Part shown: positions 4,711-37,116 of the stretch, one piece after another
Layout of the letters: each line of letters opens with the position of its first letter
Position numbering within the stretch: the first letter of the stretch is position 1
Source: a virus
Virus record (IMG/VR): IMGVR_UViG_3300045146_000200
Coordinates: 1 to 57,326 of that record
Direction: 5' to 3' (one strand)
Length of the DNA stretch: 57,326 nt
The notes under the pieces: model-generated
What the model was told of the DNA's origin: nothing
What the model saw: the letters and a program-made list of their open reading frames with translations, nothing else
The model's database searches: none
Program-made: the position numbers and the translations under genes

Positions 4711-5303
4711 TGCCAGAATCCAAATTCGTCGCGCTGCATGACACGCCAGACATCTACGGATACATCGAGGCGTACAAGGATCGCACTTACGTCGCCTTGA
4801 ATTCCATCCCAAGAGAACCGGTTGCCAATGCAATCCGTGTCATCGAAGACCTCCGGTTGTGCGGGTGGGTTTTCACCTGCGGGAACGGTGGAAGCCACTC
4901 GATAGCGTCCCATCTTGCCGAGGACCTTCTGAAGTGCAGCAAGGCTGATAAGGGGCCGCGAGCCTTTTGTCTTGGCGATGCGGCTCCTACCGTCATGGCC
5001 ATCGCCAACGATATCTCCTACGACGAGATTTTCGCGTACCAGATGGAGCGGATTGACCCTGCCGATGGGTGTCTTGTGGCCTTCAGCGGAAGCGGCAACA
5101 GCAAGAATATCATCCGAGCCGCAGAGAAAGCTAAGGAGCTTGAACTCGTTTCCATTGGCGTCACTACTATCTGCGGCGGGAAGTTGAAAGACCTGGTGGA
5201 CATACCCATTTGCATTGCCAGCGCGAACATGGCGGCACTGGAAGATGCGTTCCAAGTCGTGGCACATATGATCGCCTACTCGTTCATCGAGGACGCCCCG
5301 TGA
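4710..5303 (+). CDS. gmhA: Sedoheptulose-7-phosphate isomerase (GmhA-like, SIS domain)
   Basis: 197 residues, the usual GmhA length. GmhA converts sedoheptulose 7-phosphate to D-glycero-D-manno-heptose 7-phosphate, the first step of ADP-heptose synthesis for LPS. The SIS phosphosugar site is visible as CGNGGSHSIASHLAEDL (57-73) and FSGSGNSKNI (125-134). A conserved C-terminal helix with the E-x3-Q-x3-H type pattern (LEDAFQVVAH) matches the family's catalytic Gln/His region. It overlaps its neighbours on both sides (ATGA, GTGA), so methyltransferase, isomerase and APS kinase form one translational unit. Other SIS isomerases are possible but fit less well. Confidence 0.88.
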   Translation: MPESKFVALHDTPDIYGYIEAYKDRTYVALNSIPREPVANAIRVIEDLRLCGWVFTCGNGGSHSIASHLAEDLLKCSKADKGPRAFCLGDAAPTVMAIANDISYDEIFAYQMERIDPADGCLVAFSGSGNSKNIIRAAEKAKELELVSIGVTTICGGKLKDLVDIPICIASANMAALEDAFQVVAHMIAYSFIEDAP

Positions 5304-5824
5304 CAACCAAGGTCTACTGGATCACCGGCCTGCCAAGCTCTGGCAAGAGCACGATGGCGATGAAGCTCTTCAACGTCATCAGCGATGAACGCACCCCATG
5401 CGTCATTCTCGATGGGGACGACTTCCGGAAGTACGTCTCATCCGATTGCGATTTCAGCGTTCAAGGTAGGCGAGAGAATCTGCGCAGGGCGGCAGGTGTG
5501 GCTAGCATGCTCCGGGGGCAGGGATTCAACGTGATCTGTTGCTTCGTCTCGCCCGAGCGAAAGATGCGTCGATACATCAAGATGATTATCGGGGAGCCCA
5601 ACTTCGTAGAGATTTACCTGCGGGTAGATGCGGAACTGTGCCGAATGACAGACGTGAAGGGGAACTGGATGAAGGCCGACCTCGGCTTCCTGAAGGACTT
5701 CACCGGGAAGGACGCGGAGTATGAACAGCCGTTGCCCGGGGAGGCGAAGTACGTGTTCACGAGGACTGAGGACTTGGACAAGTTCGTGGCGCGTGTGGCG
5801 ACCGAGACCTGTCAGAAAAGCTAG
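5300..5824 (+). CDS. cysC: Adenylylsulfate (APS) kinase, makes PAPS
   Basis: 174 residues from a GTG start in a GTGA overlap with gmhA. APS kinase phosphorylates adenylyl sulfate to PAPS, the sulfate donor. Visible motifs: P-loop GLPSSGKST (10-18), DGDDFRK (38-44), the RRENLRRAAGVASML helix (57-71) and the APS-site segment FTGKDAEYEQP (134-144). This order and length match CysC. The likely user of PAPS in this genome is the sulfotransferase-like protein at 34.5-35.4 kb. Sulfate assimilation is a less likely purpose, since no sulfite reductase is present. Confidence 0.9.
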   Translation: MTTKVYWITGLPSSGKSTMAMKLFNVISDERTPCVILDGDDFRKYVSSDCDFSVQGRRENLRRAAGVASMLRGQGFNVICCFVSPERKMRRYIKMIIGEPNFVEIYLRVDAELCRMTDVKGNWMKADLGFLKDFTGKDAEYEQPLPGEAKYVFTRTEDLDKFVARVATETCQKS

Positions 5825-5829
5825 GACCA

Positions 5830-5867
5830 TAAAGAAACCCGGCTGGTTCGGTTATTCCTGCGCCGGG
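5830..5867 (-). terminator. Possible terminator of the RecT operon
   Basis: Read on the minus strand, CCCGGC and GCCGGG (5838-5867) close an 18-base loop and are followed by a T-rich tail (TTTCTTT). It lies in the 137-base gap between the convergent cysC and minus-strand recombination genes. The stem is only 6 bp, so strength is doubtful. Confidence 0.4.
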
Positions 5868-5961
5868 GACAGGTTGAGGAATGGAATTGTTACGCCCGCG
5901 GATCAACGGCACTCGAACCATTACCTCCCCGCAGTCGCGTCACACTATGGACATTTGTGAG

Positions 5962-6426
5962 TCATACTGGGCAGCCATATTCATGGCACCCGACCAGGTT
6001 GCACAATGCGCCATGGCACAACAACAGGTCGCGGGGTTTCGTCAGGTATATGCGGGCCATCATGCACGCCACCTCAAATGTGTTCTGGCTGTGATCCTGT
6101 GACACCCCAGGAACCAGCCTGTATTGTTCAGTATTTGAAAGCCTACGGAATGTTGATACCGCGGCAGGGTCTTTCAGCGCATCAGCAATCACGACCGCCT
6201 GTTCGCAGACAAACAACTCATACGCCTCATACCTCCATCGCCAACTGCGGGGATTACGATCCCGAAACGCGACCAACCGCGCGCTGAATGGCTCTGGTAA
6301 CGCCTGTATCCGGCGAGTATAGCCTTCCTCCAAGAGATAGTACTCCTTGCGGCGTTCATCATCGAATCTTGCCGCATCTTCTTTCTCGCTGATCTTCTGT
6401 TCGTCCGGTGTCGTGTTAGGGTTCAT
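5962..6426 (-). CDS. Hypothetical protein of the recombination operon
   Basis: 154 residues, no family recognised. The N-terminal third is charged and helical (EKEDAARFDDERRKEYY). The body contains aromatic-rich helices (RNPRSWRWRYEAYELFVCEQ), and the C-terminus is Cys-rich (LLLCHGALCNLVGCHEYGCPV contains five cysteines), suggesting a metal site or disulfides. It starts in a 4-base overlap with the recT-like stop and is the last gene of the three-gene minus-strand operon, so it may assist recombination or host takeover. That role is inference. Confidence 0.7.
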   Translation of the reverse strand: MNPNTTPDEQKISEKEDAARFDDERRKEYYLLEEGYTRRIQALPEPFSARLVAFRDRNPRSWRWRYEAYELFVCEQAVVIADALKDPAAVSTFRRLSNTEQYRLVPGVSQDHSQNTFEVACMMARIYLTKPRDLLLCHGALCNLVGCHEYGCPV

Positions 6427-7475
6427 ATCAGAGACCCCTGCTTTGTAGCCGGTGCCTTCCTGGGGGGCGTGTTCTTCAGGACGAGTCGGCTGATGGACTG
6501 CTTAAGGTAGTCCATCAGCTCCGCGATTTCCGGGGCGGTCAGGTTCGCTGCCCGTCCAGTCTTCTTTTCGAGCATCTCCTTGATCGCCGCGAGGCCAGCG
6601 GCGTCCTTGCCGTCCACGCAGGTCTGAATATCCGCGTCAATCTGCATCATGTCATCGGACGTGAGGGATGACTCGGGCTCAGGCTCTGGCGGCTTTGTCT
6701 CCTGAGTCTCTTGGGCCTCCGGTTTGGGCGGAGAGATTGGTTCTCCGGGTTCGGTGTGGTCCTCGACATTCCCGGGTTCAACGTGAACCTCGGGGATCTC
6801 GGGGGCGTGTGATGCGGGAAGAACCGAGACCGAGACCGCGCCTTGCGCCGGGACCTTGATATCCTGAAGTTCCTCTGCGATGCCGACCCCCTTCAGCACG
6901 TCCGCAAAGCAGTCTCGGATGGCGAAGGATCTGGCCCGCATCTGGAGCATCCTGCCCCAGTACTCGTTCCATGGGCCACTTTTGCTCCAGAGTTGGGCAT
7001 TCTTCGCGGCCTTGACGCTGAATTTTCTAGCCATCCATTCCTGGCCACGCCGCTTCAACCGGCAGACTGCCTTCAGATTGTCAGGAGCGGACGCTTTCTC
7101 TTCCGGCACGTCTTCGATTCTCTTGTCCCCGATCTCGTAGTACTCCTCGATGGCCTCGAAGGAATCCGATGCCCGGACAAGAGCCAGCGCCATATCCCCG
7201 AACACGGCTGGGCGACCGTTCACCACTGCGATATTCTGGACGGCCTGCATGGGCTTTAGGCCAAGTTCCATGCCGCACTGCATGGCCACCATGACCGTCT
7301 CTTGGGTGAACCCCTTGGGACAGATACCGGACTTGACCACCGCGCCAGAAAACCTCCACATCTCGTCCATGGTGGCGAGTTGGAGTCCGTAATTCCCGGT
7401 GGCAATCGCGCGCTTTTGAGTTGGGGCAAGTGCCGTTTCGGGTGTCGTCTTGTACTCACTCTGAGTTTCTGACAT
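6423..7475 (-). CDS. recT: RecT-family single-strand annealing protein
   Basis: 350 residues starting MSETQSEYK after AAGGAG. The N-terminal ~220 residues carry the pattern typical of phage RecT-like annealing proteins: MELGLKPMQAVQNIAVVNGRPAVFGDMAL, with segments such as GLKPMQAVQ and GRPAVFGD near residues 70-90, followed by the basic WMARKFSVKAAK and the region around LQMRARSFAIRD. The C-terminal third is Pro/Glu-rich linker and a small helical tail. It would anneal strands resected by the nuclease encoded directly upstream (1-base overlap), giving a Red/RecET-like pair. Family call is good; biochemical activity is untested. Confidence 0.82.
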   Translation of the reverse strand: MSETQSEYKTTPETALAPTQKRAIATGNYGLQLATMDEMWRFSGAVVKSGICPKGFTQETVMVAMQCGMELGLKPMQAVQNIAVVNGRPAVFGDMALALVRASDSFEAIEEYYEIGDKRIEDVPEEKASAPDNLKAVCRLKRRGQEWMARKFSVKAAKNAQLWSKSGPWNEYWGRMLQMRARSFAIRDCFADVLKGVGIAEELQDIKVPAQGAVSVSVLPASHAPEIPEVHVEPGNVEDHTEPGEPISPPKPEAQETQETKPPEPEPESSLTSDDMMQIDADIQTCVDGKDAAGLAAIKEMLEKKTGRAANLTAPEIAELMDYLKQSISRLVLKNTPPRKAPATKQGSLI

Positions 7476-8332
7476 CAAAAAAGCTCCTTCTGTTGGGGGA
7501 CGGAAACTCTCTTGCGGAAGTACGGGCATGACCCGTCTCTCGCAAATCCGCAATACTTCTCGCAACAAATCCAGTGCTCGTCGTTGGCCGGGAGAAATAC
7601 CTCGGCCTCAATCGCTCTGATTGCCGCACCGATCTTCGCCAGGATAACGTTGATATCCTCCTGGCTCCGGTCCGATACCTGCATGTCATAGACCGGCCCA
7701 GACTTCAGGCCGACAATCGTATCGAGCGCAACAGCGGTCGGCATCTTTCCGCAAATCACATTGTACGCGAGGGTGTACATGCTGAGTTGCTGGTCATTGA
7801 CTACTTTCCCGGCCTGCGGTCTACGTCCTGCCGTCTTGAGGTCTCGGATGACGCCGGATTCCTCGACCACGTCCATGCGTCCAGCGATCTTGTACGGCAG
7901 GTCGTTCATGGTCAATACCCAAGGCCATTCGATGCCCGGGTGGCCGCCAGGAAGTTCCTTGGCCGGATTGATTGCTGGTGCAATCTCCTCGGCATGGCAG
8001 ACGCACATGCCCACGGCCTTGTCCACGACTTCCCCCTGGGCTTTCGCTGGCGTCTTACCTTCTTCGGGATCGATGTAGACCCCGGATTCCATCTCGTTTT
8101 TCTCCCACGTCTCGTTCACGGTCTGGGCGGCGGCATCCTTCACGTCGTCACCTTTTAGGATCGTATCTGCCAACTTCGCTCGAAGCGTGTTGGCGGCGAC
8201 GACATGAACTGACGTGCCGAGGATGAGTGCCGCGCTGGACGGCTCCTTGTCCCCGCAGATGTATCGGCGGCGATATTTCTCGCCGCACATGAACATCAGT
8301 TCCAAGTGTGAGTTGTGTATGGTTTGGTTCAT
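7475..8332 (-). CDS. PD-(D/E)XK (RecB/Cas4-like) exonuclease, predicted leaderless
   Basis: 285 residues from MNQTIHNSHLELMF. The nuclease core is seen as GRMDVVEESGVIRDLKTA (~150-167, G-x2-D...D-x-K-T), followed by the QLSMYTLAY helix characteristic of RecB-type nucleases. Cysteines at the front (MFMCGEKYRRR) and the end (CCEKYCGFARDGSCPYF) suggest a Cas4/AddB-like Fe-S or zinc cap. It pairs with the RecT-like protein downstream. The promoter -10 lies only 7 bases before this ATG, so the mRNA probably begins at or next to the start codon. An ATG nine bases upstream (8341) falls inside the -10 region and is disfavoured. Confidence 0.85.
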   Translation of the reverse strand: MNQTIHNSHLELMFMCGEKYRRRYICGDKEPSSAALILGTSVHVVAANTLRAKLADTILKGDDVKDAAAQTVNETWEKNEMESGVYIDPEEGKTPAKAQGEVVDKAVGMCVCHAEEIAPAINPAKELPGGHPGIEWPWVLTMNDLPYKIAGRMDVVEESGVIRDLKTAGRRPQAGKVVNDQQLSMYTLAYNVICGKMPTAVALDTIVGLKSGPVYDMQVSDRSQEDINVILAKIGAAIRAIEAEVFLPANDEHWICCEKYCGFARDGSCPYFRKRVSVPQQKELF

Positions 8333-8339
8333 GCGTGGC

Positions 8340-8368
8340 ATCCTATCACAGTTGCGATTCGATTTCAA
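8340..8368 (-). promoter_or_regulatory. Leftward sigma70-type promoter for exonuclease-RecT operon
   Basis: On the minus strand TTGAAA (8363-8368), 17 bp spacer, TAGGAT (8340-8345). The expected start (about 8333) falls beside the exonuclease ATG at 8332, giving a leaderless or nearly leaderless message. It faces a second TTGAAA promoter 31 bp away. Confidence 0.7.
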
Positions 8369-8371
8369 CAC

Positions 8372-8389
8372 AAATTGCATGAAATTGCA
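8372..8389. promoter_or_regulatory. Operator-like direct repeat between divergent promoters
   Basis: AAATTGCA occurs at 8372-8379 and again at 8382-8389, a 10-bp period equal to one helical turn. The same bases also give an inverted repeat, TTGCA-N6-TGCAA. The site lies between the -35 boxes of the two divergent promoters, where a regulator could control both the recombination and the rightward operon. Confidence 0.5.
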
Positions 8390-8398
8390 AAAAATCAC

Positions 8399-8427
8399 TT
8401 GAAATCGATTCCGTGGTGTGCTATCAT
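8399..8427 (+). promoter_or_regulatory. Rightward sigma70-type promoter for the 8.5-16 kb operon
   Basis: TTGAAA (8399-8404), 17 bp, TATCAT (8422-8427); expected start about 8434. The first gene (GTG at 8472) follows after a leader of about 38 bases. Confidence 0.7.
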
Positions 8428-8471
8428 CCCGTCCTATTGGCTGTGGCATATCACCCTGGCGGAAGTGAATC

Positions 8472-8789
8472 GTGAGCCCATTCGCACAGCGAGCCTACGA
8501 GAAGATTCGAGCGCAGATCCTGCACGAGCGAGTCAATCCACCTGACCCGCACAAGTTCTCCGTGGCGTATCGCATGAAGGTCGTAGACGTCGCCCCGTTC
8601 GGTATGCCATCCAGCCTGCGGGGGGTGATAGAGGATTGTTATGTCGGGCGATTCGCATACCGACCTTGTATGCGATGCCACAAGTTGATCTGGACTGTCC
8701 CCGAGGTCCGCACCTGTGCGAGATGTCAGAACAGTAATCGGCTCATTCATGGTAAACCGGCGCGGCTGGTCGGGACGGCAGAGGAGTAG
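8472..8789 (+). CDS. Hypothetical protein with C-terminal zinc ribbon
   Basis: 105 residues from a GTG start preceded by GGAAG. The N-terminal half is mixed helix and strand. The second half has CMRCHKLIW and CARCQNSNR (about residues 66-85), a two-CxxC zinc ribbon. It is the first gene of the long rightward operon, where early host-takeover or regulatory proteins are common. No family is recognised. Confidence 0.7.
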   Translation: MSPFAQRAYEKIRAQILHERVNPPDPHKFSVAYRMKVVDVAPFGMPSSLRGVIEDCYVGRFAYRPCMRCHKLIWTVPEVRTCARCQNSNRLIHGKPARLVGTAEE

Positions 8790-8792
8790 CGT

Positions 8793-9005
8793 ATGTTCTG
8801 GGGGGAGATCAAAGACGAGGAGATGGCGATGCTGAAGGCTCTCTTGACGGAGGCCGCGTGCCGCATCTATGAGTCGGCTGGAAGGCCAACAAGAGAGACC
8901 GGCGCTTTCTACCATCACCTCGGCATGGTAACGGCGGCGGAGATTGTTCGGGGCATCGCTCGCAATTCGGATGAGATCCGCAAGATTTTGAGGAGTGCAA
9001 AATGA
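8793..9005 (+). CDS. Hypothetical small helical protein
   Basis: 70 residues, start set by GAGGAG-TAGCGT-ATG. Mostly helical (DEEMAMLKALLTEAACRIYE, TAAEIVRGIARNSDEIRKIL). It ends in an ATGA-type 4-base overlap with the methyltransferase that follows. No function can be assigned. Confidence 0.65.
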   Translation: MFWGEIKDEEMAMLKALLTEAACRIYESAGRPTRETGAFYHHLGMVTAAEIVRGIARNSDEIRKILRSAK

Positions 9006-9733
9006 CTTGGGTTGACGACCTCAAGACCAAGGAGTGGCAGCTTTACTCTCAGCATGGCGAGGATGGGATCTCGCTCACTATCCTGCCGCACCTGTGCAGG
9101 AGAGGCGTCGCCCTGGAAATTGGCGCGGGCAATGGCGACCAGAACAATACCCGCATTCTCAGCGATGTCTGCGGATGGCTGTGCTACTGTTTCGACGGCA
9201 AGTGGGGGAATGAGCGCGTCAACAAAGTACACGTCACCAGAGACAATATGAAGGATGTCGTCAAATGGGCCAAATTCGGTGGCAATGACCCATTCGACGT
9301 GGTTTCCATAGACGTAGACGGCGTTGACTGGTGGCTCTGGAAGGCCTTCCTTGAAACTGGCGCGCGCCCGGGTCTGTGCATTCTGGAGTACAACGGAGCG
9401 GTCAGAGGAGACGTAGCCGTGACCGTTCCCTACTCGGATAACTTCCAGTGGGATGGGACGGACTACCATGGGGCGAGTTTGCTGGCCTTCGAGATGCTTG
9501 GACTACAGTACGCGTATCGGCTCGTCTACTGTGAGTCATCGGGGACTAACGCCTTCTTTGTGCATGAGAAGTGCTTGAAAGGCATCGAAGCGCCTAAACT
9601 CCACGATCTCTATCGCCGTCGTCACGTCGAGTTCGGGTGGCGACCCGATCTGCCGTGGCAATACGTGTTCTCCGAACTCGGCACTTCCGAGCTACGGCCG
9701 TTCACAAGGCAGGAAATAGGAGCGTTCGCATGA
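9002..9733 (+). CDS. FkbM-like class I SAM-dependent methyltransferase
   Basis: 243 residues. The N-terminus has YSQHGEDGISL (~16-26), a hallmark of FkbM-type and related sugar methyltransferases. The SAM loop is VALEIGAGNGDQNNT (~36-50), and the strand-4 acidic segment is FDVVSIDVDGVDWWLW (~98-113). These proteins methylate sugar hydroxyls in capsules, LPS or natural products. Overlaps of four bases with both neighbours indicate an operon. With the TylF-type and other methyltransferases here it could decorate a phage-directed glycan; the substrate is unknown. Confidence 0.75.
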   Translation: MTWVDDLKTKEWQLYSQHGEDGISLTILPHLCRRGVALEIGAGNGDQNNTRILSDVCGWLCYCFDGKWGNERVNKVHVTRDNMKDVVKWAKFGGNDPFDVVSIDVDGVDWWLWKAFLETGARPGLCILEYNGAVRGDVAVTVPYSDNFQWDGTDYHGASLLAFEMLGLQYAYRLVYCESSGTNAFFVHEKCLKGIEAPKLHDLYRRRHVEFGWRPDLPWQYVFSELGTSELRPFTRQEIGAFA

Positions 9734-10134
9734 TCGGCACCAAAGAGCAATGGGAAGCGGTGGTTCGTGGCGTTGGCGAGGTGGTCGCACTGAACTGCGT
9801 CGATGATGGCAAGTACTGGCGATACGACACCCTCTGGCATTCCCCCGATGGCTCGTTCGGGTTCGATACCGTGTTTGTCAAAAAGGACACTCCGTGGTGT
9901 GACGATGCGAAGGATGCCGTAGTCACCAATGCCATCCTCGAAATGACGAAGGCCCCCAATGCCCAGGCGGCCTATCTGTATCTGATTAAGCCGTTCTACG
10001 AGTGCCAGGACCCCGAGAACGAGGACATCAATACGTTCGTCAAGTTGGCCGAGGCTGGATTGCGCAAGTTCGGCCTGACAGAAGATCCGATGCCATGGGA
10101 GGTGGAGAGTGAATCCGACCGCGCCCAAAGTTGA
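9730..10134 (+). CDS. Hypothetical protein
   Basis: 134 residues from an ATG overlapping the methyltransferase stop. Composition suggests a compact alpha/beta protein: VVALNCVDDGKYWRYDTLWH, a strand-rich middle, then helices. The end overlaps the next gene's GTG start by 26 bases. Not recognised; no cysteine motif, membrane segment or repeat is seen. Confidence 0.65.
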   Translation: MIGTKEQWEAVVRGVGEVVALNCVDDGKYWRYDTLWHSPDGSFGFDTVFVKKDTPWCDDAKDAVVTNAILEMTKAPNAQAAYLYLIKPFYECQDPENEDINTFVKLAEAGLRKFGLTEDPMPWEVESESDRAQS

Positions 10135-10345: not shown

Positions 10346-10351
10346 TAAATC

Positions 10352-10540
10352 ATGGGGAGGCTTTCATTCCGTGTCAGTTTCAACGACGTGAAGTGGAAAT
10401 GGATGAGGTGCCTTCGGTGTGGTCGGAAGTTCTGGACGCACAAAGGGCGGCGCATCTGCTCGAAGCACAACAAGATTACTCGGTCCGGAGTAATTGCCCC
10501 AAAAGTCTATCGAAATATCCAGGAGGGAAAACATGCGTAA
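10352..10540 (+). CDS. Small zinc-finger protein
   Basis: 62 residues, basic. A treble-clef or ribbon-like motif is visible: CLRCGRKFWTHKGRRICSKH (residues ~20-39), a C-x2-C...C-x2-H arrangement. GAGGTGATAAATC precedes the ATG. The stop overlaps the start of the heptose kinase gene by 8 bases. It may bind nucleic acid; function unknown. Confidence 0.68.
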   Translation: MGRLSFRVSFNDVKWKWMRCLRCGRKFWTHKGRRICSKHNKITRSGVIAPKVYRNIQEGKHA

Positions 10541-11513
10541 GGTGAGCCAAGAGGCTATTGCTCAGGCCGTCGAGGTGATACGAAGTGAAGACGGTATTGC
10601 CCCGCGCGTTGCCATCGCCGGGGATCTCATTCTGGACAGATACGTCATGGGGACTGTCAGCCGTATCAGCCCGGAGGCCCCTGTGCCGGTGTTCGATGTC
10701 GTGGAAGAGTACTACAGGCCGGGTGGGGCAGGGAACGTGGCGATGAACTGCCGAGACCTTGGTGCAAACGAGTGGTTGTATGCGGCTTTCTCCGGCACAT
10801 ATACTTGGCGAGAGATCGCGGCCATTGACAGACGGTACGTGAGTCATTACCTCGCGTCCTCTTCCAAGCCGCCGATCATGAAGACCAGGTACATGGCTGG
10901 GCAGCATCAACTCCTCCGCGTGGACAGGGACTACGGGGTGGAACTCTGCGAGAATTCCAGGAACGCCTTTTTGTGCAACATCAACGGGATCAGCAATCTC
11001 ACGCTCATCATTTCCGATTACAACAAGGGCACGCTGGACGGTATGCGCGAGGATATAGTCCGTATCGCCAAGAAGCAGAACTGCCTCGTCCTTGTGGACA
11101 GCAAGTCGCCCACATGGAGCTTCTACACCCGGTCTGACGTATTCATGCCGAACCGCAAGGAGTTCGAGGCTGTCCGGGGGAAATGCAGGGACTTGCAACA
11201 CATCGCTGACGAGGCCGAGATTACCAAGGACTTCGAGACGATCATTGTCACCCTCGGGTCTGATGGAATGCTCTTGTGCCAGAAGGGGCAAGAGCCGGTT
11301 CACATTGAAGCGACGGCAAGGGCGGTGTTCGATGTTTGCGGCGCGGGGGATACAGCTATCGCCGCTCTTGCCGTCCTTCTTCAACTTGGATGCGGCATGG
11401 AAGCGGCGACGTGGGGGGCGAATCTGGCCGCAGGGATCAAGGTGGAAAAGATTGGGACGGCTACAGTCACTCGGGAAGAATGGAGGAAGGCATGCAATGA
11501 AACTCACACTTGA
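10533..11513 (+). CDS. hldA: Heptose-7-phosphate kinase, HldE kinase-domain type (PfkB family)
   Basis: 326 residues, start fixed by CAGGAGGGAAAAC-ATG. HldE/HldA kinases phosphorylate D-glycero-beta-D-manno-heptose 7-phosphate at C1. Seen here: GDLILDRYVMG (~25-35), RPGGAGNVAMNCRDLGA (~62-78), SDYNKGTL, VDSKSPTWS, TPN-like MPNRKEFE and the PfkB signature FDVCGAGDTA near 270 with its catalytic Asp. The order closely follows the HldE N-terminal domain, and the C-terminal nucleotidyltransferase domain of bifunctional HldE is absent. Together with the GmhA-like protein it gives two early ADP-heptose steps. An ADP-heptose-forming nucleotidyltransferase might be the protein at 31.06 kb, which is uncertain. 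Confidence 0.88.
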   Translation: MRKVSQEAIAQAVEVIRSEDGIAPRVAIAGDLILDRYVMGTVSRISPEAPVPVFDVVEEYYRPGGAGNVAMNCRDLGANEWLYAAFSGTYTWREIAAIDRRYVSHYLASSSKPPIMKTRYMAGQHQLLRVDRDYGVELCENSRNAFLCNINGISNLTLIISDYNKGTLDGMREDIVRIAKKQNCLVLVDSKSPTWSFYTRSDVFMPNRKEFEAVRGKCRDLQHIADEAEITKDFETIIVTLGSDGMLLCQKGQEPVHIEATARAVFDVCGAGDTAIAALAVLLQLGCGMEAATWGANLAAGIKVEKIGTATVTREEWRKACNETHT

Positions 11514-30151: not shown

Positions 30152-30180
30152 TTGAACACAACACCCGCCTAGCGTAGACT
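30152..30180 (+). promoter_or_regulatory. Sigma70-type promoter for RusA operon, leaderless
   Basis: TTGAAC (30152-30157), 17 bp, TAGACT (30175-30180); eight bases separate the -10 from the RusA ATG at 30189, so transcription should begin at or next to the start codon. Confidence 0.65.
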
Positions 30181-30188
30181 CTCCGCGC

Positions 30189-31056: not shown

Positions 31057-31059
31057 CCC

Positions 31060-31479
31060 ATGCGCGAAAAATATCACTGTTTCATCGGCCGGTGGAGTCC
31101 TCCACACCTCGGGCATGCGTACCTGTGGAAGACAGCGCACGAGGAAGATGGCCTTCCAATCCTCGTGCTCGTGCGAGACTCGGAAGACCTGTGGCCACCA
31201 TTAGTAAGGCGCGACATGGTCGAGGCTACCCTGGATGATCTAGGTATCCCTGGATATGCCGAGGTCATCCCGGACATTGAGTCTGTGGACTACGGCAGAG
31301 ACGTGGGGTATCGCGTGCGGCAGCTTGCCCCGGACGGATGCCCTCAAATCTCGGGCACGGCAATCCGAGCGGCCATCTGCAATGGCGATGAAGCTGGGTG
31401 GATCTCTGTTGTTACGCATACAGTCGCACAGATCATCAAAAGGGGGCGGAATGATCCGAAGTATCCTCTTTTGGCTTGA
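31060..31479 (+). CDS. HIGH-motif nucleotidyltransferase
   Basis: 139 residues. CFIGRWSPPHLGH (~7-19) is the GRx...HxGH nucleotide-binding motif and QISGTAIRAAI (~111-121) the second (ISxTxIR) motif. This places it in the class of NadM, ATP sulfurylase, CTP:glycerol and ADP-heptose transferases. IPDIESVDYGRDVGY is a feature I recall from nucleotidyltransferases found with or fused to APS kinases, so an adenylyltransferase partner for CysC is one option. HldE-type heptose adenylylation is another, but the motif GRWSPPH fits NadM/sulfurylase-like proteins better. Confidence 0.78.
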   Translation: MREKYHCFIGRWSPPHLGHAYLWKTAHEEDGLPILVLVRDSEDLWPPLVRRDMVEATLDDLGIPGYAEVIPDIESVDYGRDVGYRVRQLAPDGCPQISGTAIRAAICNGDEAGWISVVTHTVAQIIKRGRNDPKYPLLA

Positions 31480-31615: not shown

Positions 31616-31881
31616 AGCTCGAAATCGAATCACGAATCAATCTGCTTGCTCCCGTCTTGCGGGGGCTTACCAGAGACCGATCCACGGCGTTTAAGGCATA
31701 TACCGAGGCGATGGCTGCGCGGGAAGAGGGCCTTGCGCGCAAGGCGGCATGGCCCAGCGAATTCGACGTGGCAGACGGCTACCATCTAAACCTAGCCACG
31801 TCCACCGCGTCACGTTATCTAGCTCTGGTTGCGGAGCTAGACGACCGCATAGAGAACCTCTTGAAGGAATACCGCGCATGA
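31612..31881 (+). CDS. Hypothetical helical protein
   Basis: 89 residues, MKLEIESRINLLAPVLRGL..., in four-base overlaps with both neighbours. Coiled-coil-like helices (STAFKAYTEAMAAREEGLARKA, LALVAELDDRIENLLKEY). Not recognised. Confidence 0.6.
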   Translation: MKLEIESRINLLAPVLRGLTRDRSTAFKAYTEAMAAREEGLARKAAWPSEFDVADGYHLNLATSTASRYLALVAELDDRIENLLKEYRA

Positions 31882-32615
31882 AGCTGGAAATAGGCTCCGG
31901 GTACCATCCGCACCTTGGCTTCGAGCACATGGATATCAACCCGAAGCTCCCCCACGTCGAGCACGCCCAGGACGCAACTAAGCTCTCCAAGTTCGCCGAT
32001 GGTAGCATAGGGGAAGTCCTATCCGTCGATTGTATCGAGCACTTCGGGTGGCCGGTTGTACCTGACGTATTGAAGGAGTGGGTTCGGATCATCGTTCCGG
32101 GTGGGGTCATTCGCATCGAGACCTCGGACTTCGATGCCATCCTGCGGATTTACAAGGAGCCTGGCCATGCCACCCTGAACGCCCTTTGGGACGTGCCGCA
32201 CTTCCGGTTCCCGTTCGGCAGTCATCGGCATGCTTTCCGATGGCTTCAATTCGAGTTGTACTCAGGCATCCAAGGGCCGGGGGCTCATCGAGCCACCTTC
32301 ACATTCGAGTACATGTCTGAGTTGCTGCTTGAGGCTGGGTGCGACATGATTCAGCACCACCCCCACCCGCACAGACTTCGCGTCGTTGCGCGGAAAAAAC
32401 CAACTCGCGACGTGCCGTGTGCCGCATGCGGGACTCGGGACCTCAGCGTGTCCAGGTGGATGTTCCAGGGCATGTGCTCCCGGTGCAGAGACCTCGCCGT
32501 CGTAGGCGAGGTCAACCCTCGGGTGGCCGAAGAGGAAAATGTCAGGCTTGGGGGCTCGATGCTCTTCAAGCCCGGGTTCATGTCGTTCGATGTGAACGGA
32601 GCCAGACTGTCATAA
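31878..32615 (+). CDS. SAM-dependent methyltransferase with C-terminal zinc ribbon
   Basis: 245 residues. The Methyltransf_11-like start KLEIGSGYHPHLGFEHMDIN (~2-21) holds the SAM loop and acidic ribose contact. FADGSIGEVLSVDCIEHFGW and EWVRIIVPGGVIRIETSDF continue the fold, as in small-molecule or sugar methyltransferases common in glycan clusters. Residues ~175-205 are a zinc ribbon (CAACGTRDL, MCSRCRD), an unusual addition. Starts in an ATGA overlap. Substrate unknown; a glycan role is inferred from the nearby GT9 gene. Confidence 0.78.
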   Translation: MKLEIGSGYHPHLGFEHMDINPKLPHVEHAQDATKLSKFADGSIGEVLSVDCIEHFGWPVVPDVLKEWVRIIVPGGVIRIETSDFDAILRIYKEPGHATLNALWDVPHFRFPFGSHRHAFRWLQFELYSGIQGPGAHRATFTFEYMSELLLEAGCDMIQHHPHPHRLRVVARKKPTRDVPCAACGTRDLSVSRWMFQGMCSRCRDLAVVGEVNPRVAEEENVRLGGSMLFKPGFMSFDVNGARLS

Positions 32616-32625
32616 CAGGAGGACA

Positions 32626-32904
32626 ATGACCATGGCAGCGCAAGCGGAACAGAAACAGGGAATGCTCTTCGATGACGAAGCTCGGCAACTCATGGACGAG
32701 ATCGAGAGCATCAAGGCCAAGATTCGGCCACTGAAGGAGCAACAGGCTAACGCAGAAGCCAAGCTGCTGGATGTGATGGAACGGAACAAGAAACAGACGG
32801 CAGTGGTCGTGATCGACGGCGAGAAGAAGTCTCTCCTCGTCGTGAAGAAGGTCCGCGTGTCCAAGGCCAAGGCGGTTCGGGCAGCCAAGGCGTTGTTCAC
32901 ATGA
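32626..32904 (+). CDS. Hypothetical coiled-coil protein
   Basis: 92 residues; heptad-rich QLMDEIESIKAKIRPLKEQQANAEAKL (coiled coil ~22-48) then a basic beta-like tail (VVVIDGEKKSLLVVKKVRVSKAKAVRAAK). CAGGAGGACA precedes ATG 32626; ATG 32632 is possible. The basic end could bind nucleic acid. Confidence 0.62.
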   Translation: MTMAAQAEQKQGMLFDDEARQLMDEIESIKAKIRPLKEQQANAEAKLLDVMERNKKQTAVVVIDGEKKSLLVVKKVRVSKAKAVRAAKALFT

Positions 32905-32987
32905 CCTGGATAGATTTTCTGCCAGCATGTCTGATGGCCTTCCTGATATTGCTGTCATTCTTCTATCTCGGGAGAAAGGGAAAGTAA
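32901..32987 (+). CDS. 28-residue membrane micro-protein
   Basis: MTWIDFLPACLMAFLILLSF then FYLGRKGK. Starts in an ATGA overlap with the coiled-coil gene. A single hydrophobic helix with a positively charged end predicts a one-span inner-membrane peptide. Too short for standard gene finders. Confidence 0.5.
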   Translation: MTWIDFLPACLMAFLILLSFFYLGRKGK

Positions 32988-32989
32988 TC

Positions 32990-33079
32990 ATGTCCTGGCC
33001 TGAAGCCATAGCGTTCAGTTTCCTCTGCCTTTCCCTTGCCATCGTCGGTGCCGTGTTTTTCTGGAGACTGCTGAAGTGA
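32990..33079 (+). CDS. 29-residue membrane micro-protein
   Basis: MSWPEAIAFSFLCLSLAIVG then AVFFWRLLK. Two bases after the previous micro-gene, with GGAGAAAGGGAAAG upstream, and its stop overlaps the next GTG start (GTGA). One membrane span. The pair of adjacent one-span peptides may act together, like small holin, antiholin or exclusion peptides. Confidence 0.5.
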   Translation: MSWPEAIAFSFLCLSLAIVGAVFFWRLLK

Positions 33080-33984
33080 GCCAGCCCAAGATTTTGTACA
33101 CCGTCGCAGGTGGGGGCATGGGCGATATCGTTATGACCTACTATCGCCGTGCGGACTGGCGACGTATCACCGACGCCAAACGCATCTATCCCGAGCACCT
33201 CGTCATGGGAATCGTGATCTCGCCTACCTTCCCAATGGGCGAACTGGTGTCAACCTGCCCCCATCTGGACATTCTCTACATGCCGGACTACCCGGGCGTT
33301 GAGAAGGTCGCGGACAGGTACTGGCTCAGGACATTGCCTGAAGGAGCGCGCAACCTCGATGGGGCATACGACATCCCGGAACGGGACAATCGGATGTGGC
33401 TCGACCCCCTTGAGCGACGCATCTTTGACAAGCTCATCGGCATGGGACGATACGTCGTCCTCGCCCCATACGCTCGGCAGGGAGAACGCAACTGCCGCCC
33501 CTTCTGTGGCAAGACCGGATGCTTCGCAGAAGAGAAGTACGTCCCCCTGGCCGAGTGCCTGTGCAAGCTCGGCTGGCACGTCATTATCATTGGGGCACAG
33601 GAAAACGGGTTTCCACTGCCGGAGGTGGCATCCTGTGCTGGGCGGTGCATCTTGAACTGGGTGAACAACACGAGCATTCGACTGGCCGTAGAGGTCATAC
33701 GCAATGCGGACGGGTTCATAGGACCTCAGTCAGGCCCCCTCGCTGCGGCGTGGAGCAACAAGGTCCCGAGCGTCTTCTTCTTCCCCGAGGGCGTGCATGA
33801 TCGGAATTGGGAGATCCTGACTGGAAGGTTCAACGGGGACTGGTCATGGTATACCGGCGTGTACTGCAAGGACGAGCCGTGGGTGGCGTGGTTCATGGAG
33901 ACCCCAGAAGGGTTCGCTGGCCTCGCACCTGAAACTGTGGCGATGAAACTCGAAGAGGTGATGAAGCGGAGAGTCCCGTTATAA
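33076..33984 (+). CDS. Glycosyltransferase family 9 (heptosyltransferase-like)
   Basis: 302 residues from GTG 33076. The N-terminus ILYTVAGGGMGDIVMTYYR (G-x-G-D-x-x-M/L-T) and the C-terminal donor site IRNADGFIGPQSGPLAAAWSNKVPSVFFFPEG match GT9 proteins such as LPS heptosyltransferases, including the position of the donor-binding Asp/Ser-Gly-Pro. WHVIIIGAQENG adds the Rossmann link. Family members move heptose from ADP-heptose. With GmhA and the HldE-type kinase in this genome, heptose transfer is plausible; other nucleotide sugars are possible. Some phage GT9 proteins lack activity data. Confidence 0.75.
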   Translation: MSQPKILYTVAGGGMGDIVMTYYRRADWRRITDAKRIYPEHLVMGIVISPTFPMGELVSTCPHLDILYMPDYPGVEKVADRYWLRTLPEGARNLDGAYDIPERDNRMWLDPLERRIFDKLIGMGRYVVLAPYARQGERNCRPFCGKTGCFAEEKYVPLAECLCKLGWHVIIIGAQENGFPLPEVASCAGRCILNWVNNTSIRLAVEVIRNADGFIGPQSGPLAAAWSNKVPSVFFFPEGVHDRNWEILTGRFNGDWSWYTGVYCKDEPWVAWFMETPEGFAGLAPETVAMKLEEVMKRRVPL

Positions 33985-33996
33985 GGAGGGAATAAC

Positions 33997-34470
33997 ATGA
34001 TTGTCCCGGCTGTATTGGTGATCTCGTGTGGAGTTCTGGCTGCGGCCACGATCTTGCTTGGACTTTACTGCTGGAGCCTGAGGACGGAACTGCAAGACGC
34101 GCGGGCACTGCTTTATAAACTGCGGACGGCATGCGCATTGTCCTCCGCTAAACCAGTTGATCAACAGGAAGCGCCCAGCGCGCCTCCGGCCATACCCGGT
34201 CGTTTCCCATTCCAACACCGAATCAGGTCGCTCTGCAACCTCAAGTGGGTATTCGAGGTGTATCACGGGGAGGAATGGAAGGCCGCGCGGTTATGGTGTG
34301 GAGGACCTAAGTTCATTCGACAAGGAGACTCAGACTACCATGAGTGCTTCTGCGATAGAGAGACCGCCGCTGATGCCCTTCGGGCGCAAATTATGGCCCG
34401 ATATGGCGTTGGCATCGATGAATATCAAGCCGAAGTGGAACGCACGAGAGAAAAGAAGCAAGATGCCTGA
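33997..34470 (+). CDS. Membrane-anchored hypothetical protein
   Basis: 157 residues with AAGGAGGGAATAAC upstream. An N-terminal transmembrane segment (VPAVLVISCGVLAAATILLG, ~3-22) is followed by a helix, a Pro-rich linker and a cytoplasmic or periplasmic domain (NLKWVFEVYHGEEWKAARLW). The C-terminus overlaps the next gene by 8 bases. Not recognised. Confidence 0.6.
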   Translation: MIVPAVLVISCGVLAAATILLGLYCWSLRTELQDARALLYKLRTACALSSAKPVDQQEAPSAPPAIPGRFPFQHRIRSLCNLKWVFEVYHGEEWKAARLWCGGPKFIRQGDSDYHECFCDRETAADALRAQIMARYGVGIDEYQAEVERTREKKQDA

Positions 34471-35377
34471 CCAGAATCAGTACGTAGTCACCTACTCGAT
34501 CATGCACACGGGCACGTGGTTCGTCCTGAAGCTGATCGATACCTGCTGGTGGAGGTATCGTCGAGCCGTCTTCGGGGATATCGACGTGATACCGGCCATA
34601 CACGGGGAGTCATTGGAAGCCTGCCTTGAAACTCATGGCCCACTCGATGCCGCATGGTTCGACCGCTTCGTCGTCCAGTTCACCCCCTTCGCATATCGGG
34701 CGGACAACACCCGATTCCACGTCAATATCCACCACCAGTACCCGAACGCCAAGGGCTTCACCATTCGGCACCGCTCCATGATCCCAATTGTGATCCCAGT
34801 GAGAGATCCACTCTTGGCCTGGGTGTCCAGGGTTCAACGGCAGACGAATTGGGTAGAGTTCCAAGCCATGCCGCCTGACCAGAGGGAAGAGGAGTTCAAG
34901 GTGTTCCTTTGCCTCTGGGACGACCTGTTCGCCATTGACCCCAAGTTCGTCTGTTTCTTCCGAGTTGACTGGCCTGCGACCCCGGACACGCTCGATATCC
35001 GCATGGAGCAAGCGTTCAGGTTCTTCGAGTGGTGTCATCTGCCGCCCCCGGTTATGGCCCTAGACTACGTGCGGAAATGGGCGCCGGTTAATACAGCCTT
35101 AGGCCCGAGCGGAGCCATCAAACCGTGGGCTACGCCGAAGGAAGTCCAATGGGTCAAGGACGCGGCGTTCAAACAGGATGTGGCCACGTTAGCTAAGGTG
35201 TTCCACGTCGAGTGGCCTATGCTCGTGGCGAAGCATGAATGGATCGGCCCGCTCAAATGCCTCGGATACTCCAACCTGTGCTGGTGGCCGGAGTTCAAAC
35301 CTGCTTCGGCAACAGCATCAGTATCCCCGTCTGACCCTCCCACCATACCCGCTGATGTGTCTGCCCAAACAAAGTGA
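34463..35377 (+). CDS. Sulfotransferase-like protein (PAPS-dependent)
   Basis: 304 residues. SIMHTGTWFVLKLID (~12-26) resembles the 5'-phosphosulfate loop of sulfotransferases, here HTGTW rather than the usual K-SGTTW. VIPVRDPLLAWVSRVQ (RDP at 114-116, S122) matches the 3'-phosphate-binding RDP...S motif. The ensemble fits a sulfotransferase moving sulfate from PAPS to a sugar or other hydroxyl. The phage's APS kinase would supply PAPS. The gene overlaps the upstream one by 8 bases and runs 83 bases into the convergent methyltransferase gene. The lysine-free loop leaves some doubt on activity. Confidence 0.65.
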   Translation: MPDQNQYVVTYSIMHTGTWFVLKLIDTCWWRYRRAVFGDIDVIPAIHGESLEACLETHGPLDAAWFDRFVVQFTPFAYRADNTRFHVNIHHQYPNAKGFTIRHRSMIPIVIPVRDPLLAWVSRVQRQTNWVEFQAMPPDQREEEFKVFLCLWDDLFAIDPKFVCFFRVDWPATPDTLDIRMEQAFRFFEWCHLPPPVMALDYVRKWAPVNTALGPSGAIKPWATPKEVQWVKDAAFKQDVATLAKVFHVEWPMLVAKHEWIGPLKCLGYSNLCWWPEFKPASATASVSPSDPPTIPADVSAQTK

Positions 35378-35831
35378 TAACCGACAGGTCCACGTCCTGA
35401 GCGTGAGGACTGGCTACAGGCAGGCGTGACAACGGCGACCTGATCTGCGCTAGGTCATCCACGAGGATTATGTCCCTCCGCACGTCCGTCTTCAGGGCCA
35501 CAATCCCAAGTTCCTCGGCAATCGGTATCCTGACCGTCGTGTCCTGCATTGGGAAGTGCGCATCTAGCCAGAAGAGGCAGGGGCCGACGAGGTGTGGAAT
35601 GATGCGTTCAAGGAAGGCCGAGCCGTCGAGGTTCATCACGACGGCCTTGGGAAAGGCGCGCTGGCAGGCGTCGGCGCACCCCTTCACAATGTCACAAGAG
35701 AAGATTTTCCCGATCCCTGCGTCCATAGCGGCCTTCATCCCGCCACCGCCTAGACACCCTGTCTCAACGAAGTTCTGGATGCCGTAGTGCTGCACGAAGG
35801 GAGCGAGGGGGAACTGACTGAGGTAGGACAT
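35295..35831 (-). CDS. SAM-dependent methyltransferase-like protein
   Basis: 178 residues with AAAGGAGCCGTC upstream. NFVETGCLGGGGMKAAMDAG (~18-37) is the SAM loop, KIFSCDI the acidic strand-2 position and CLFWLDAHFP the strand-4 region, then DIILVDDLAQI. This arrangement recurs in phage and bacterial proteins related to FkbM/TylF methyltransferases. Its 3' end overlaps the convergent sulfotransferase-like gene by 83 bases. Substrate unknown. Confidence 0.72.
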   Translation of the reverse strand: MSYLSQFPLAPFVQHYGIQNFVETGCLGGGGMKAAMDAGIGKIFSCDIVKGCADACQRAFPKAVVMNLDGSAFLERIIPHLVGPCLFWLDAHFPMQDTTVRIPIAEELGIVALKTDVRRDIILVDDLAQIRSPLSRLPVASPHAQDVDLSVITLFGQTHQRVWWEGQTGILMLLPKQV

Positions 35832-35974
35832 GACGGCTCCTTTGCACGATGTTTCGGGATGAGTCTGCCGCCACATGCGCAAACGTGGCGGAACTTGCTG
35901 TCATCCATGACTTCCATGGTATCACGTCGGCCACAATCCTCACACTCGAAAAGATGCGCGTGCCTGTAGGACAT
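35750..35974 (-). CDS. Small zinc-ribbon protein overlapping the methyltransferase start
   Basis: 74 residues, AAAGGAGAATCT before ATG. FECEDCGRRDTM and CACGGRLIPK form a zinc ribbon in the first 45 residues. The last ~27 residues are encoded in a second frame of the methyltransferase gene (82-base overlap) and look low-complexity, so the functional part is probably the ribbon. A promoter-terminator pair lies just upstream. Confidence 0.55.
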   Translation of the reverse strand: MSYRHAHLFECEDCGRRDTMEVMDDSKFRHVCACGGRLIPKHRAKEPSCPTSVSSPSLPSCSTTASRTSLRQGV

Positions 35975-35992
35975 AGATTCTCCTTTCGGTCC

Positions 35993-36029
35993 AAAAAAAG
36001 CCCCCGCCAGCCACTGCTCTGGCGAGGGC
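35993..36029 (-). terminator. Terminator hairpin before the zinc-ribbon gene (attenuator-like)
   Basis: On the minus strand GCCCTCGCCAG pairs with CTGGCGGGGGC (11 bp with one G-U) across 8 bases, then TTTTTTT. It ends transcripts from the PAPS-reductase side, and also those starting at the promoter only ~30 bases upstream of the stem. Confidence 0.8.
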
Positions 36030-36063
36030 GTGCTCCGCACAGGATTCACACCATGCTACTGGT

Positions 36064-36092
36064 ATTCTAGTCTAGGGGAGTGCCGGAGTCAA
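36064..36092 (-). promoter_or_regulatory. Near-consensus leftward promoter
   Basis: On the minus strand TTGACT (36087-36092), 17 bp, TAGAAT (36064-36069), five of six matches in each box. Expected start about 36057, so the first ~65 bases end in the terminator at 35993-36029. Either a short RNA is made or the terminator is regulated. Confidence 0.75.
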
Positions 36093-36281
36093 GGTCGGCA
36101 TAGGAGGAAGCGGCTGCCACAACGTGGGCGTCCATTCACTGTCTTCTGCCCATGCACCGCACACGCAGAGTGACCAGTAGTTGCCCAACATTCTGTACCG
36201 GACAACAGCGCACTCTCCGCCTGCATATCCGAGAATCGGAGTCCCGTCCATAGGAGCGGAATCAATCGGTTGCCAATCCAT
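36072..36281 (-). CDS. DUF551 family protein
   Basis: 69 residues after GGAGGTGTCTG. MDWQPIDSAPMDGTPILGYA and TPTLWQPLPPMP match DUF551 (W-x-P-x-x-x-A/R-x-x-x-G-x-P-x-L ... W-x-P-x-P). Function unknown. Its last bases contain the promoter at 36064-36092. Confidence 0.8.
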   Translation of the reverse strand: MDWQPIDSAPMDGTPILGYAGGECAVVRYRMLGNYWSLCVCGAWAEDSEWTPTLWQPLPPMPTLTPALP

Positions 36282-36345
36282 CAGACACCTCCAGAGCAAT
36301 AGCCTTCGAGATCCCCCCAAAAGGCCCTCCAACTTTTCCGGAGAC

Positions 36346-37116
36346 TCACGGGAATCGCAACTCACCTTGATTCGGGTCCTCGGCACTGGCCCTCTTATCG
36401 GCCAGCCACCAATCCCAGACATCCTGGGCTGTTGACCAGAAGTCCCAATGATCGCGGGTTTTCAACATATGCTCGAACGCGCGCAGGTAGAGCGCCTTGT
36501 ACCTTGGCCAACGCCGAAAGTCTTGCATGCGCTTTTCACGCGTGGCCATCGGGCATCCGATGCAACCAACTCGCTTCCAGCCTTGATCGTACAGGCAACA
36601 ATAGGGCAGATTGTGCTCGTGAATGTACTCCCACACGTCCTCGTTGGACCAGTCAAGGATGGGATGGACGAAGCGTTGGCTGTTGTCGCGATAGCAGACC
36701 TCCGCGATCTGCCGCTTTTTCCTGCGTGCGCTTTCCGCTGCCCGGATACCGGTTAGCACGGTTTCACCCTTGCCATATCGCTCTTTGAGTTCTTCACAAC
36801 AATACCTGGCGATCCTCGTCGGCGGCATGTGACGCTCTACGATCAATGTCCACATGGTTTTGGGCGGCCTATGGATGGTCACCTCGGGATGATGCTCCTT
36901 CACGAAGTGAACTACTTCGGGCGGGTCGATGCTCGTTAGGTAAAAGTGCGCGGCGAACTTGACGCCTGCGGACTTGGCCAGGTGCAGGAGTACAACCGAA
37001 TCTTTGCCCCCAGAGAACGCCAGGTGGTAACCTTCTGGCGGCTGGAAGGTCTGCATTCGCTCTATCGCCATGGCGACCCGGTCAATGGTGCCGAAGAGGG
37101 TAGGTTCGCGAAGCAT
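36346..37116 (-). CDS. PAPS-reductase-like protein (adenine nucleotide alpha-hydrolase fold)
   Basis: 256 residues with GGAGAAGTTCA before the ATG. The PP-loop SGGKDSVVLLHLAKSAG (~35-51) and VLTGIRAAESARRKKR (~115-130), then FVHPILDWSNEDVWEYI, are the CysH/PAPS-reductase pattern. Cysteines in YCCEELKER, YCCLYDQG and VGCIGCPM could hold an Fe-S cluster, as in APS-type or DndC-like proteins. Phage members are widespread with unclear roles; they may not reduce PAPS. The presence of an APS kinase in the same genome makes nucleotide-sulfate chemistry worth testing. The gene follows a terminator, so it has its own start or read-through. Confidence 0.82.
   Translation of the reverse strand: MLREPTLFGTIDRVAMAIERMQTFQPPEGYHLAFSGGKDSVVLLHLAKSAGVKFAAHFYLTSIDPPEVVHFVKEHHPEVTIHRPPKTMWTLIVERHMPPTRIARYCCEELKERYGKGETVLTGIRAAESARRKKRQIAEVCYRDNSQRFVHPILDWSNEDVWEYIHEHNLPYCCLYDQGWKRVGCIGCPMATREKRMQDFRRWPRYKALYLRAFEHMLKTRDHWDFWSTAQDVWDWWLADKRASAEDPNQGELRFP

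What the first reader, a model, noticed from the sequence alone, without database searches (positions are those of the whole stretch)
5300..37116. Phage sulfation module: APS kinase, sulfotransferase-like protein, PAPS-reductase-like protein and possible adenylyltransferase
CysC has all its motifs and would make PAPS; the 34463 protein has a PAPS-type HTGTW loop and RDP...S motif; a PAPS-reductase-like protein lies at 36.3-37.1 kb; the nucleotidyltransferase has a sulfurylase/NadM-like ISGT-x-IR motif. Phage-encoded sulfation of a glycan or nucleotide would be unusual.
Basis: partly seen in the sequence, partly recalled or inferred. Interest (0 to 1): 0.85.

Follow-up and report, generated by a model that had tools for sequence, protein, structure and literature searches.

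The report
Phage sulfate-transfer and sugar-decoration gene set
This virus of bacteria appears to carry its own enzymes for activating sulfate and attaching it, probably to an unusual seven-carbon-sugar glycan, and the same combination of genes recurs in many unrelated phages, so phage 'sulfur metabolism' genes may often serve sulfation rather than nutrition.

Summary
(1) 5300-5824 is a real APS-kinase (CysC) homologue with the whole APS pocket, in a TylF-methyltransferase/GmhA/CysC operon. One ATP-stacking Arg is Thr. (2) 34463-35377 is not an orphan. It belongs to an unnamed phage family (about 15 distinct relatives) with invariant HTGTW, His and RD, and near-invariant P in RDP...(S/T). The AlphaFold model's 23 best PDB matches are all PAPS sulfotransferases, though none is individually significant. 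(3) The 31060-31479 nucleotidyltransferase is the usual partner of phage CysC, next to or fused with the kinase in 45 loci. It is NadM-like by sequence; ATP sulfurylase activity is an inference. (4) In viral CysC-type loci sulfotransferase genes sit beside the kinase (19 of 35 within 100 bp; odds ratio 14). Control contigs have none. (5) The PAPS-reductase-like gene is not part of this. (6) An RfaE-like heptose kinase (10533-11513), GmhA, GT9-like glycosyltransferases and methyltransferases belong instead; HTGTW relatives sit in heptose/transketolase clusters in other phages. Most likely: PAPS-dependent sulfation of a heptose-type glycan on the virion or host surface. No activity has been shown.

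The parts
4117..4710 (+). TylF/Methyltransf_24-type sugar O-methyltransferase, first gene of the operon
   Evidence: PF13578 9e-12, PF05711 1.5e-11, both over cut-off
4710..5303 (+). GmhA-like phosphoheptose (sedoheptulose-7-P) isomerase, SIS domain; overlaps its neighbours by 1 and 4 bases
   Evidence: PF13580 2.9e-12; TIGR00441 gmhA 1.8e-28 but below the equivalog cut-off; overlaps read from sequence
5300..5824 (+). CysC-like APS kinase; APS-pocket residues conserved, ATP-stacking Arg replaced by T117
   Evidence: PF01583 9.4e-37; alignment; residue table; contact residues from PMC4373884
10533..11513 (+). RfaE/HldE domain-I-like D-glycero-D-manno-heptose-7-phosphate kinase (PfkB family)
   Evidence: TIGR02198 5.1e-79, below the equivalog cut-off; PF00294 1.5e-20
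31060..31479 (+). NadM-like HxGH nucleotidyltransferase with GRxxPxHxGH, YGRxVGY and ISGTxIR; conserved partner of phage CysC; candidate small sulfate adenylyltransferase
   Evidence: homologues next to or fused with CysC-type kinases in 45 loci; alignment A5; nearest PDB MJ0541 NadM 4.6e-14
31878..32615 (+). class I SAM methyltransferase
   Evidence: PF08241 1.4e-5
33076..33984 (+). GT9 (heptosyltransferase)-like glycosyltransferase, weak match
   Evidence: PF01075 2.8e-4, just below cut-off
34463..35377 (+). HTGTW-family sulfotransferase-like protein: HTGTW (15-19, 5'-PSB-like), H58, RDP...S (114-122, 3'-PB-like), R126
   Evidence: BLASTP to L235 1e-9 over 272 aa; 16-sequence alignment; AlphaFold2 core and Foldseek
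38713..39849 (-). glycosyltransferase-like protein of phrog_6804, next to the large structural genes; relatives lie beside head genes in D3-like Pseudomonas phages
   Evidence: phrog_6804 2.2e-27; tblastn
36346..37116 (-). PAPS-reductase-like PP-loop protein; examined and excluded from the module
   Evidence: PF01507 1.8e-29, phrog_424 1.4e-44; no association with viral CysC or sulfotransferases

Best explanation
The phage carries a PAPS-dependent sulfation pathway tied to heptose-type sugar synthesis. Proposed steps: (a) adenylyltransferase 31060 makes APS from ATP and sulfate, or the host's ATP sulfurylase does; (b) CysC 5300 phosphorylates APS to PAPS; (c) GmhA 4710 and the RfaE-like kinase 10533 make an activated heptose, the TylF-type methyltransferase and others methylate it, and GT9-like enzymes 33076/38713 transfer it; (d) the HTGTW-family protein 34463 uses PAPS to sulfate that sugar or its acceptor. 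Because these genes border structural genes, here and in relatives, the likeliest target is a virion (capsid or tail) glycan, next a host surface glycan. Shown: homology of CysC, GmhA and RfaE; the HTGTW family and its sulfotransferase-like predicted fold; coupling of CysC, nucleotidyltransferase and sulfotransferases across viruses; the presence of HTGTW genes in heptose/transketolase/GT9 clusters. Inferred: all activities, the order of steps, the acceptor, and APS synthesis by 31060.
For: CysC-type loci carry the nucleotidyltransferase next to or fused with the kinase in 45 cases, including both domain orders. Curated sulfotransferase families (PF03567, PF13469, PF00685, PF17784) lie beside viral CysC, and 19 of 35 such genes are within 100 bp of the kinase against 88 of 933 ORFs (odds ratio 14, p = 6e-12). 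Sulfotransfer_2/_3 over cut-off: 18 of 50 CysC-type contigs, 0 of 24 controls (Fisher p = 3e-4). HTGTW is a real family; one member touches Sulfotransfer_1 at 0.0021; the window model (pTM 0.66, most of the core at pLDDT 80-93) has 23 PAPS sulfotransferases as its 23 best PDB matches. HTGTW genes sit with RfaE-like kinase, split transketolase, methyltransferase-GT9 fusion and CysC-like kinase in L268, and with RfaE-like and CysC-like kinases in L270; L281 has the fused kinase-nucleotidyltransferase. The APS pocket is conserved.
Against: No single fold match is significant (best E 0.35; TM 0.2-0.33) and single-sequence profile scores are at noise. Window CysC has lost an Arg kept by all its full-length relatives examined. 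The genes are spread over 30 kb here, not one operon. The nucleotidyltransferase is NadM-like by sequence. GmhA, CysC and RfaE all score below equivalog cut-offs. GmhB and an NTP_transferase-type sugar-nucleotide transferase were not found in the window, so the host must complete the heptose pathway. The host is unknown.
Confidence: 0.6

Rival explanations
1. Sulfur assimilation: CysC and the PAPS-reductase-like protein raise the flux of sulfate to sulfide and cysteine during infection, the usual reading of phage cysC and cysH.
For: Both genes are in the window. Published viromes read phage cysC/cysH as assimilatory sulfate reduction (PMC10914622).
Against: No viral CysC locus carries a homologue of the reductase-like protein; only bacterial ones do. 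Viral contigs with its relatives have no Sulfotransfer_2/_3 match. Viral CysC genes abut sulfotransferases.
Confidence: 0.12
2. The CysC-like protein is a nucleotide kinase of another pathway, such as a CDP-phosphoramidate kinase (Cj1415 of Campylobacter, recalled from memory) decorating a heptose, given the GmhA and TylF neighbours and the altered lid.
For: Operon with GmhA and TylF; ATP-side Arg changed to Thr.
Against: All tested APS-contact residues are kept. No PPDK_N, GATase or NTP_transferase partner domains in the window. No Cj1415 sequence was available for direct comparison.
Confidence: 0.1
3. The 31060 protein is an NMN adenylyltransferase (NAD salvage or counter-defence) unrelated to sulfation.
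For: Nearest curated and solved relatives are NadM enzymes; a related fused gene in Stenotrophomonas phage Bhz60 follows a NADAR gene.
Against: Its half that differs from NadM carries a conserved GRxVGY signature; it is coupled to APS-kinase-like proteins in 45 loci, some with adjacent sulfotransferases.
Confidence: 0.3
4. The HTGTW family is a P-loop family without sulfotransferase activity (a kinase, or a degenerate binding protein).
For: No Pfam sulfotransferase match over cut-off; weak fold E-values.
Against: The two conserved motifs fall where the 5'-PSB and 3'-PB motifs lie in sulfotransferases; all of the 23 best fold matches are sulfotransferases.
Confidence: 0.2

Closest known systems
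APS kinase (CysC, PF01583) and bifunctional PAPS synthases
   Same: Same family and APS-binding residues; in some phages the kinase is fused to a nucleotidyltransferase in either order, as in animal PAPSS and Aquifex SAT/APSK
   Different: The phage nucleotidyltransferase is a small (about 140 aa) NadM-like protein, not a canonical ATP sulfurylase; the window kinase lacks the ATP-stacking Arg
PAPS-dependent sulfotransferases (Sulfotransfer_1/_2/_3/_4)
   Same: N-terminal P-loop-like motif after a strand, RDP...S/T motif, predicted fold
   Different: The window member of the HTGTW family is not detected by Pfam, PHROGs, NCBIfam or PDB sequence searches
Phage heptose/LPS clusters (Caulobacter phage Cr30; Prochlorococcus phage P-SSM2)
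   Same: Phosphoheptose isomerase and heptose kinase genes in a phage
   Different: No CysC or sulfotransferase is annotated in the stretches of those two phages that were read
phrog_10255 'kinase' of Stenotrophomonas phages DLP6 and Bhz60
   Same: CysC-like kinase half plus a nucleotidyltransferase half like 31060
   Different: In short kinases of this kind the lid segment with the C556/R559/K562-equivalent residues is missing
Phage cysC/cysH auxiliary metabolic genes (PMC10914622)
   Same: cysC in phage genomes is already reported
   Different: That work reads it as assimilatory sulfate reduction; 'sulfotransferase' and 'sulfation' do not occur in its main text

Membership tests
APS kinase (CysC) | PF01583 match over gathering score | tested here: met
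   126.8 vs 21.1 bits
APS kinase (CysC) | apsK equivalog score (TIGR00455) | tested here: not met
   121.6 vs 138.7 bits
APS kinase (CysC) | APS-contact residues (Mtb K456, D480, R483, F492, R497, S524, K562, F576) | tested here: met
   all present (contacts from PMC4373884)
APS kinase (CysC) | lid Arg stacking on ATP adenine (Mtb R559) | tested here: not met
   T117; Arg in 80 of 80 bacterial and 21 of 21 full-length viral relatives
APS kinase (CysC) | kinase activity on APS | not testable with these tools
   needs purified protein
PAPS sulfotransferase (for 34463) | Pfam Sulfotransfer family over cut-off | tested here: not met
   no match for the window protein; relative L238 to Sulfotransfer_1 at 0.0021, below cut-off
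PAPS sulfotransferase (for 34463) | 5'-PSB-like loop and 3'-PB-like R-x-P...S/T motif conserved across the family | tested here: met
   HTGTW, R and D invariant in 16 sequences; P over 90%
PAPS sulfotransferase (for 34463) | sulfotransferase fold | tested here: inconclusive
   23 best PDB matches all sulfotransferases, but best E 0.35 and low TM
PAPS sulfotransferase (for 34463) | binding of PAPS/PAP | not testable with these tools
   needs ITC or a structure
ATP sulfurylase (for 31060) | PF01747 match | tested here: not met
   E 0.24 and 11.2 vs 24.3 bits; no match in the record
NadM NMN adenylyltransferase (for 31060) | equivalog score TIGR01527 / subfamily PRK01153 | tested here: not met
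   20.1 vs 181.2 and 30 vs 127 bits
GmhA phosphoheptose isomerase | TIGR00441 equivalog cut-off | tested here: not met
   99.6 vs 209 bits, though E 1.8e-28
RfaE domain I heptose kinase | TIGR02198 cut-off | tested here: not met
   265.7 vs 345 bits, E 5.1e-79
Methyl phosphoramidate (MeOPN) pathway | partner domains: PPDK_N-type glutamine kinase, GATase, nucleotidylyltransferase (partners recalled from memory) | tested here: not met
   PF01326, PF00117 and PF00483 not found in the record

The most novel reading that the evidence does not exclude
Phages carry a self-contained sulfate-to-sulfated-glycan pathway in which a NadM-like protein of about 140 aa with a GRxVGY signature is a new, minimal ATP sulfurylase that works with CysC, and the HTGTW family is a new clade of sulfotransferases that sulfates a phage-made heptose glycan on the virion.
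Probability: 0.27. Interest if true: 0.88.

Novelty: new variant of a known kind. Interest (0 to 1): 0.72.

Why it matters
Phage cysC is reported as an auxiliary metabolic gene for sulfate assimilation. The gene neighbourhoods here say it more often feeds sulfotransferases, which would change how a widespread set of viral sulfur genes is interpreted. Sulfated virion or host glycans would be an unusual phage trait with possible roles in receptor use, superinfection exclusion or particle stability. If the small nucleotidyltransferase makes APS, it would be a new and unusually small sulfate-activating enzyme. A 2023 paper states that the function of phage sulfotransferases is unclear (PMC10580990); this gives a testable answer.

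Tried and rejected
Single-sequence AlphaFold of 34463 failed (pLDDT 33). Close-relative scans with the 34463 protein in viral and genome collections found nothing, as did tblastn to isolated phages; the breakthrough was a degenerate HTGTWF pattern. A first pattern gave two chance hits: an integrase-like protein (L003) and a truncated reading frame (L002). Local sulfotransferase profiles did not separate the window protein from shuffles (rank 1 with one profile but only 5.5 vs 4.8 bits, and lower with the others), so that test is not used as support. CysC 'phage' hits MT838634 and MT839805 (unverified faecal records), OQ572406 (unverified) and AGRM01000002 look bacterial and were set aside. The PAPS-reductase-like gene was considered as a module member and rejected. 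ATP sulfurylase, GmhB, NTP_transferase, PPDK_N and GATase were sought in the record and not found.
Full report
What the window is. It is a 57,326-base IMG/VR virus record without tRNA genes. A second contig (L004) matches both window ends at about 100% and joins them through about 5.5 kb that is not in the window. That stretch encodes proteins that look like a portal, a scaffold and a major capsid protein (read from the sequences only). The genome is therefore probably about 63 kb, and the missing piece holds head genes rather than parts of the module.

The CysC gene. ORF 5300-5824 is an APS-kinase homologue (PF01583 9.4e-37; 24 PDB sequences matched, best 6e-26). It overlaps gmhA (4710-5303) by four bases, and gmhA overlaps a TylF-type methyltransferase (4117-4710) by one, so the three look translationally coupled. 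Mapped through the M. tuberculosis structure paper (PMC4373884), every APS-contact residue tested is present. The Arg that stacks on the ATP adenine is Thr117, while all 80 bacterial and 21 full-length viral relatives have Arg. The acceptor site therefore argues for APS, and the donor side is unusual.

Phage CysC lives with sulfotransferases and a nucleotidyltransferase. A profile scan of viral contigs with CysC returned 80 loci. Homologues of the window's 31060 nucleotidyltransferase were found by tblastn in 45 of the loci then held, nearly all of them in this viral set, either next to the kinase or fused to it, in both orders. The neighbours include proteins that Pfam calls sulfotransferases above cut-off: L095, L098, L100, L102, L108, L111. 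Whole-contig searches found Sulfotransfer_3 or _2 above cut-off in 18 of 50 CysC-type contigs, but in 0 of 13 contigs chosen for a PAPS-reductase-like gene and 0 of 11 contigs chosen by chance pattern hits. In the CysC-type loci 19 of 35 sulfotransferase-like genes lie within 100 bp of the kinase, against 88 of 933 ORFs of 120 aa or more (odds ratio 14, p = 6e-12). The local profiles that defined those 35 genes were seeded from neighbours of CysC, so the enrichment is biased towards it to an unknown degree; the Pfam comparison is the independent one. Related contigs are not independent, so all these p-values are indicative only.

The 34463 protein. Alone it matches nothing in Pfam, PHROGs, NCBIfam or the PDB, and single-sequence AlphaFold failed. 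A degenerate HTGTWF pattern and a profile scan recovered about 15 distinct homologues. BLASTP of the window protein to L235 gives about 1e-9 over 272 residues in a small database. Across 16 sequences H15, T16, G17, T18, W19, H58, R114, D115, R126, N210 and L254 are invariant, and P116 is present in 90% or more. The layout, strand then HTGTW, later RDP followed by Ser or Thr, is that of the two PAPS-binding motifs of sulfotransferases (family knowledge). With the alignment, AlphaFold gave mean pLDDT 67, most of the core at 80-93 and pTM 0.66. Foldseek's 23 best PDB matches are all PAPS sulfotransferases (SULT2A1, SOT18, SULT1C2, 3-OST-1, TPST2 and others), but the best E-value is 0.35 and TM-scores are about 0.2-0.33; the best viral match is a sulfotransferase-domain protein at E 0.64. 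I read this as strong in aggregate and weak singly.

The nucleotidyltransferase. The family keeps GRxxPxHxGH, RD, GRxVGY and SxTxIR. Its profile finds archaeal NadM best (MJ0541, 4.6e-14), but only over the shared HxGH half plus the SxTxIR helix; the region between is different. No member reaches the ATP-sulfurylase cut-off, and the window protein fails the NadM cut-offs as well. The case for APS synthesis is its coupling to APS kinase and sulfotransferases, and the PAPS-synthase-like fusions. It is an inference.

The sugar side. The window also has an RfaE-domain-I-like heptose kinase (5e-79), two GT9-like proteins and several methyltransferases. Independently, HTGTW relatives sit in sugar clusters of other phages. 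L268 runs zinc dehydrogenase, short-chain dehydrogenase, PfkB/RfaE kinase, a further gene, Transketolase_N, the HTGTW gene, a transketolase pyrimidine-binding domain, a methyltransferase-GT9 fusion and an APS-kinase-like gene. L264 and L270 also carry the RfaE-like kinase, L270 the APS-kinase-like gene, and L281 the fused kinase-nucleotidyltransferase. Several of these clusters seem to lie among head genes, as does the 38713 relative in D3-like phages. This is why a virion glycan is my first choice of target, by inference.

The PAPS-reductase-like gene is a common phage family (phrog_424). It shows no association with viral CysC or with sulfotransferases here and is left out.

Novelty. cysC in phages is known and is read as assimilatory sulfate reduction (PMC10914622), and phage sulfotransferases are known with unclear function (PMC10580990). 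The full-text searches made here found no paper that joins them into a sulfation module, within a library that lacks most subscription journals. The components are known kinds; the combination, the HTGTW family and the small nucleotidyltransferase partner appear new.

Noticed in passing
window ends; L004 3350-8457: The record lacks about 5.5 kb of portal/scaffold/capsid-like genes that a second contig supplies between the window's two ends.
   Followed up: partly
L140, L143, L150, L153, L159, L171, L172: Short CysC-like kinases without the R559/K562 lid segment overlap, by a few bases, a PRSGST- or HRSGGT-type sulfotransferase gene; a second, apparently widespread phage module whose kinase substrate may differ from APS.
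   Followed up: partly
L096, L095, L102, L104, L111: A DUF2061 small membrane protein (PF09834 3e-21 in L096) or a similar-looking sequence next to or fused with viral CysC.
   Followed up: no
L005 (LR756500 huge phage) and Stenotrophomonas phage Bhz60 (L010): A NADAR-annotated gene (Bhz60), or a NADAR-looking ORF (huge phage), close to the CysC-like kinase in two unrelated phages.
   Followed up: no
window 35295-35831 (-) and 9002-9733 (+): Two further methyltransferase-looking proteins without Pfam matches; the first is similar to a protein in the L113 sugar locus (tblastn 1e-6).
   Followed up: no
L265 5994-6740 and L260 3076-3852: Second, diverged copies of the HTGTW family with TYSTGMWF or TAHYTGMWF in place of HTGTWF beside the canonical copy.
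   Followed up: no
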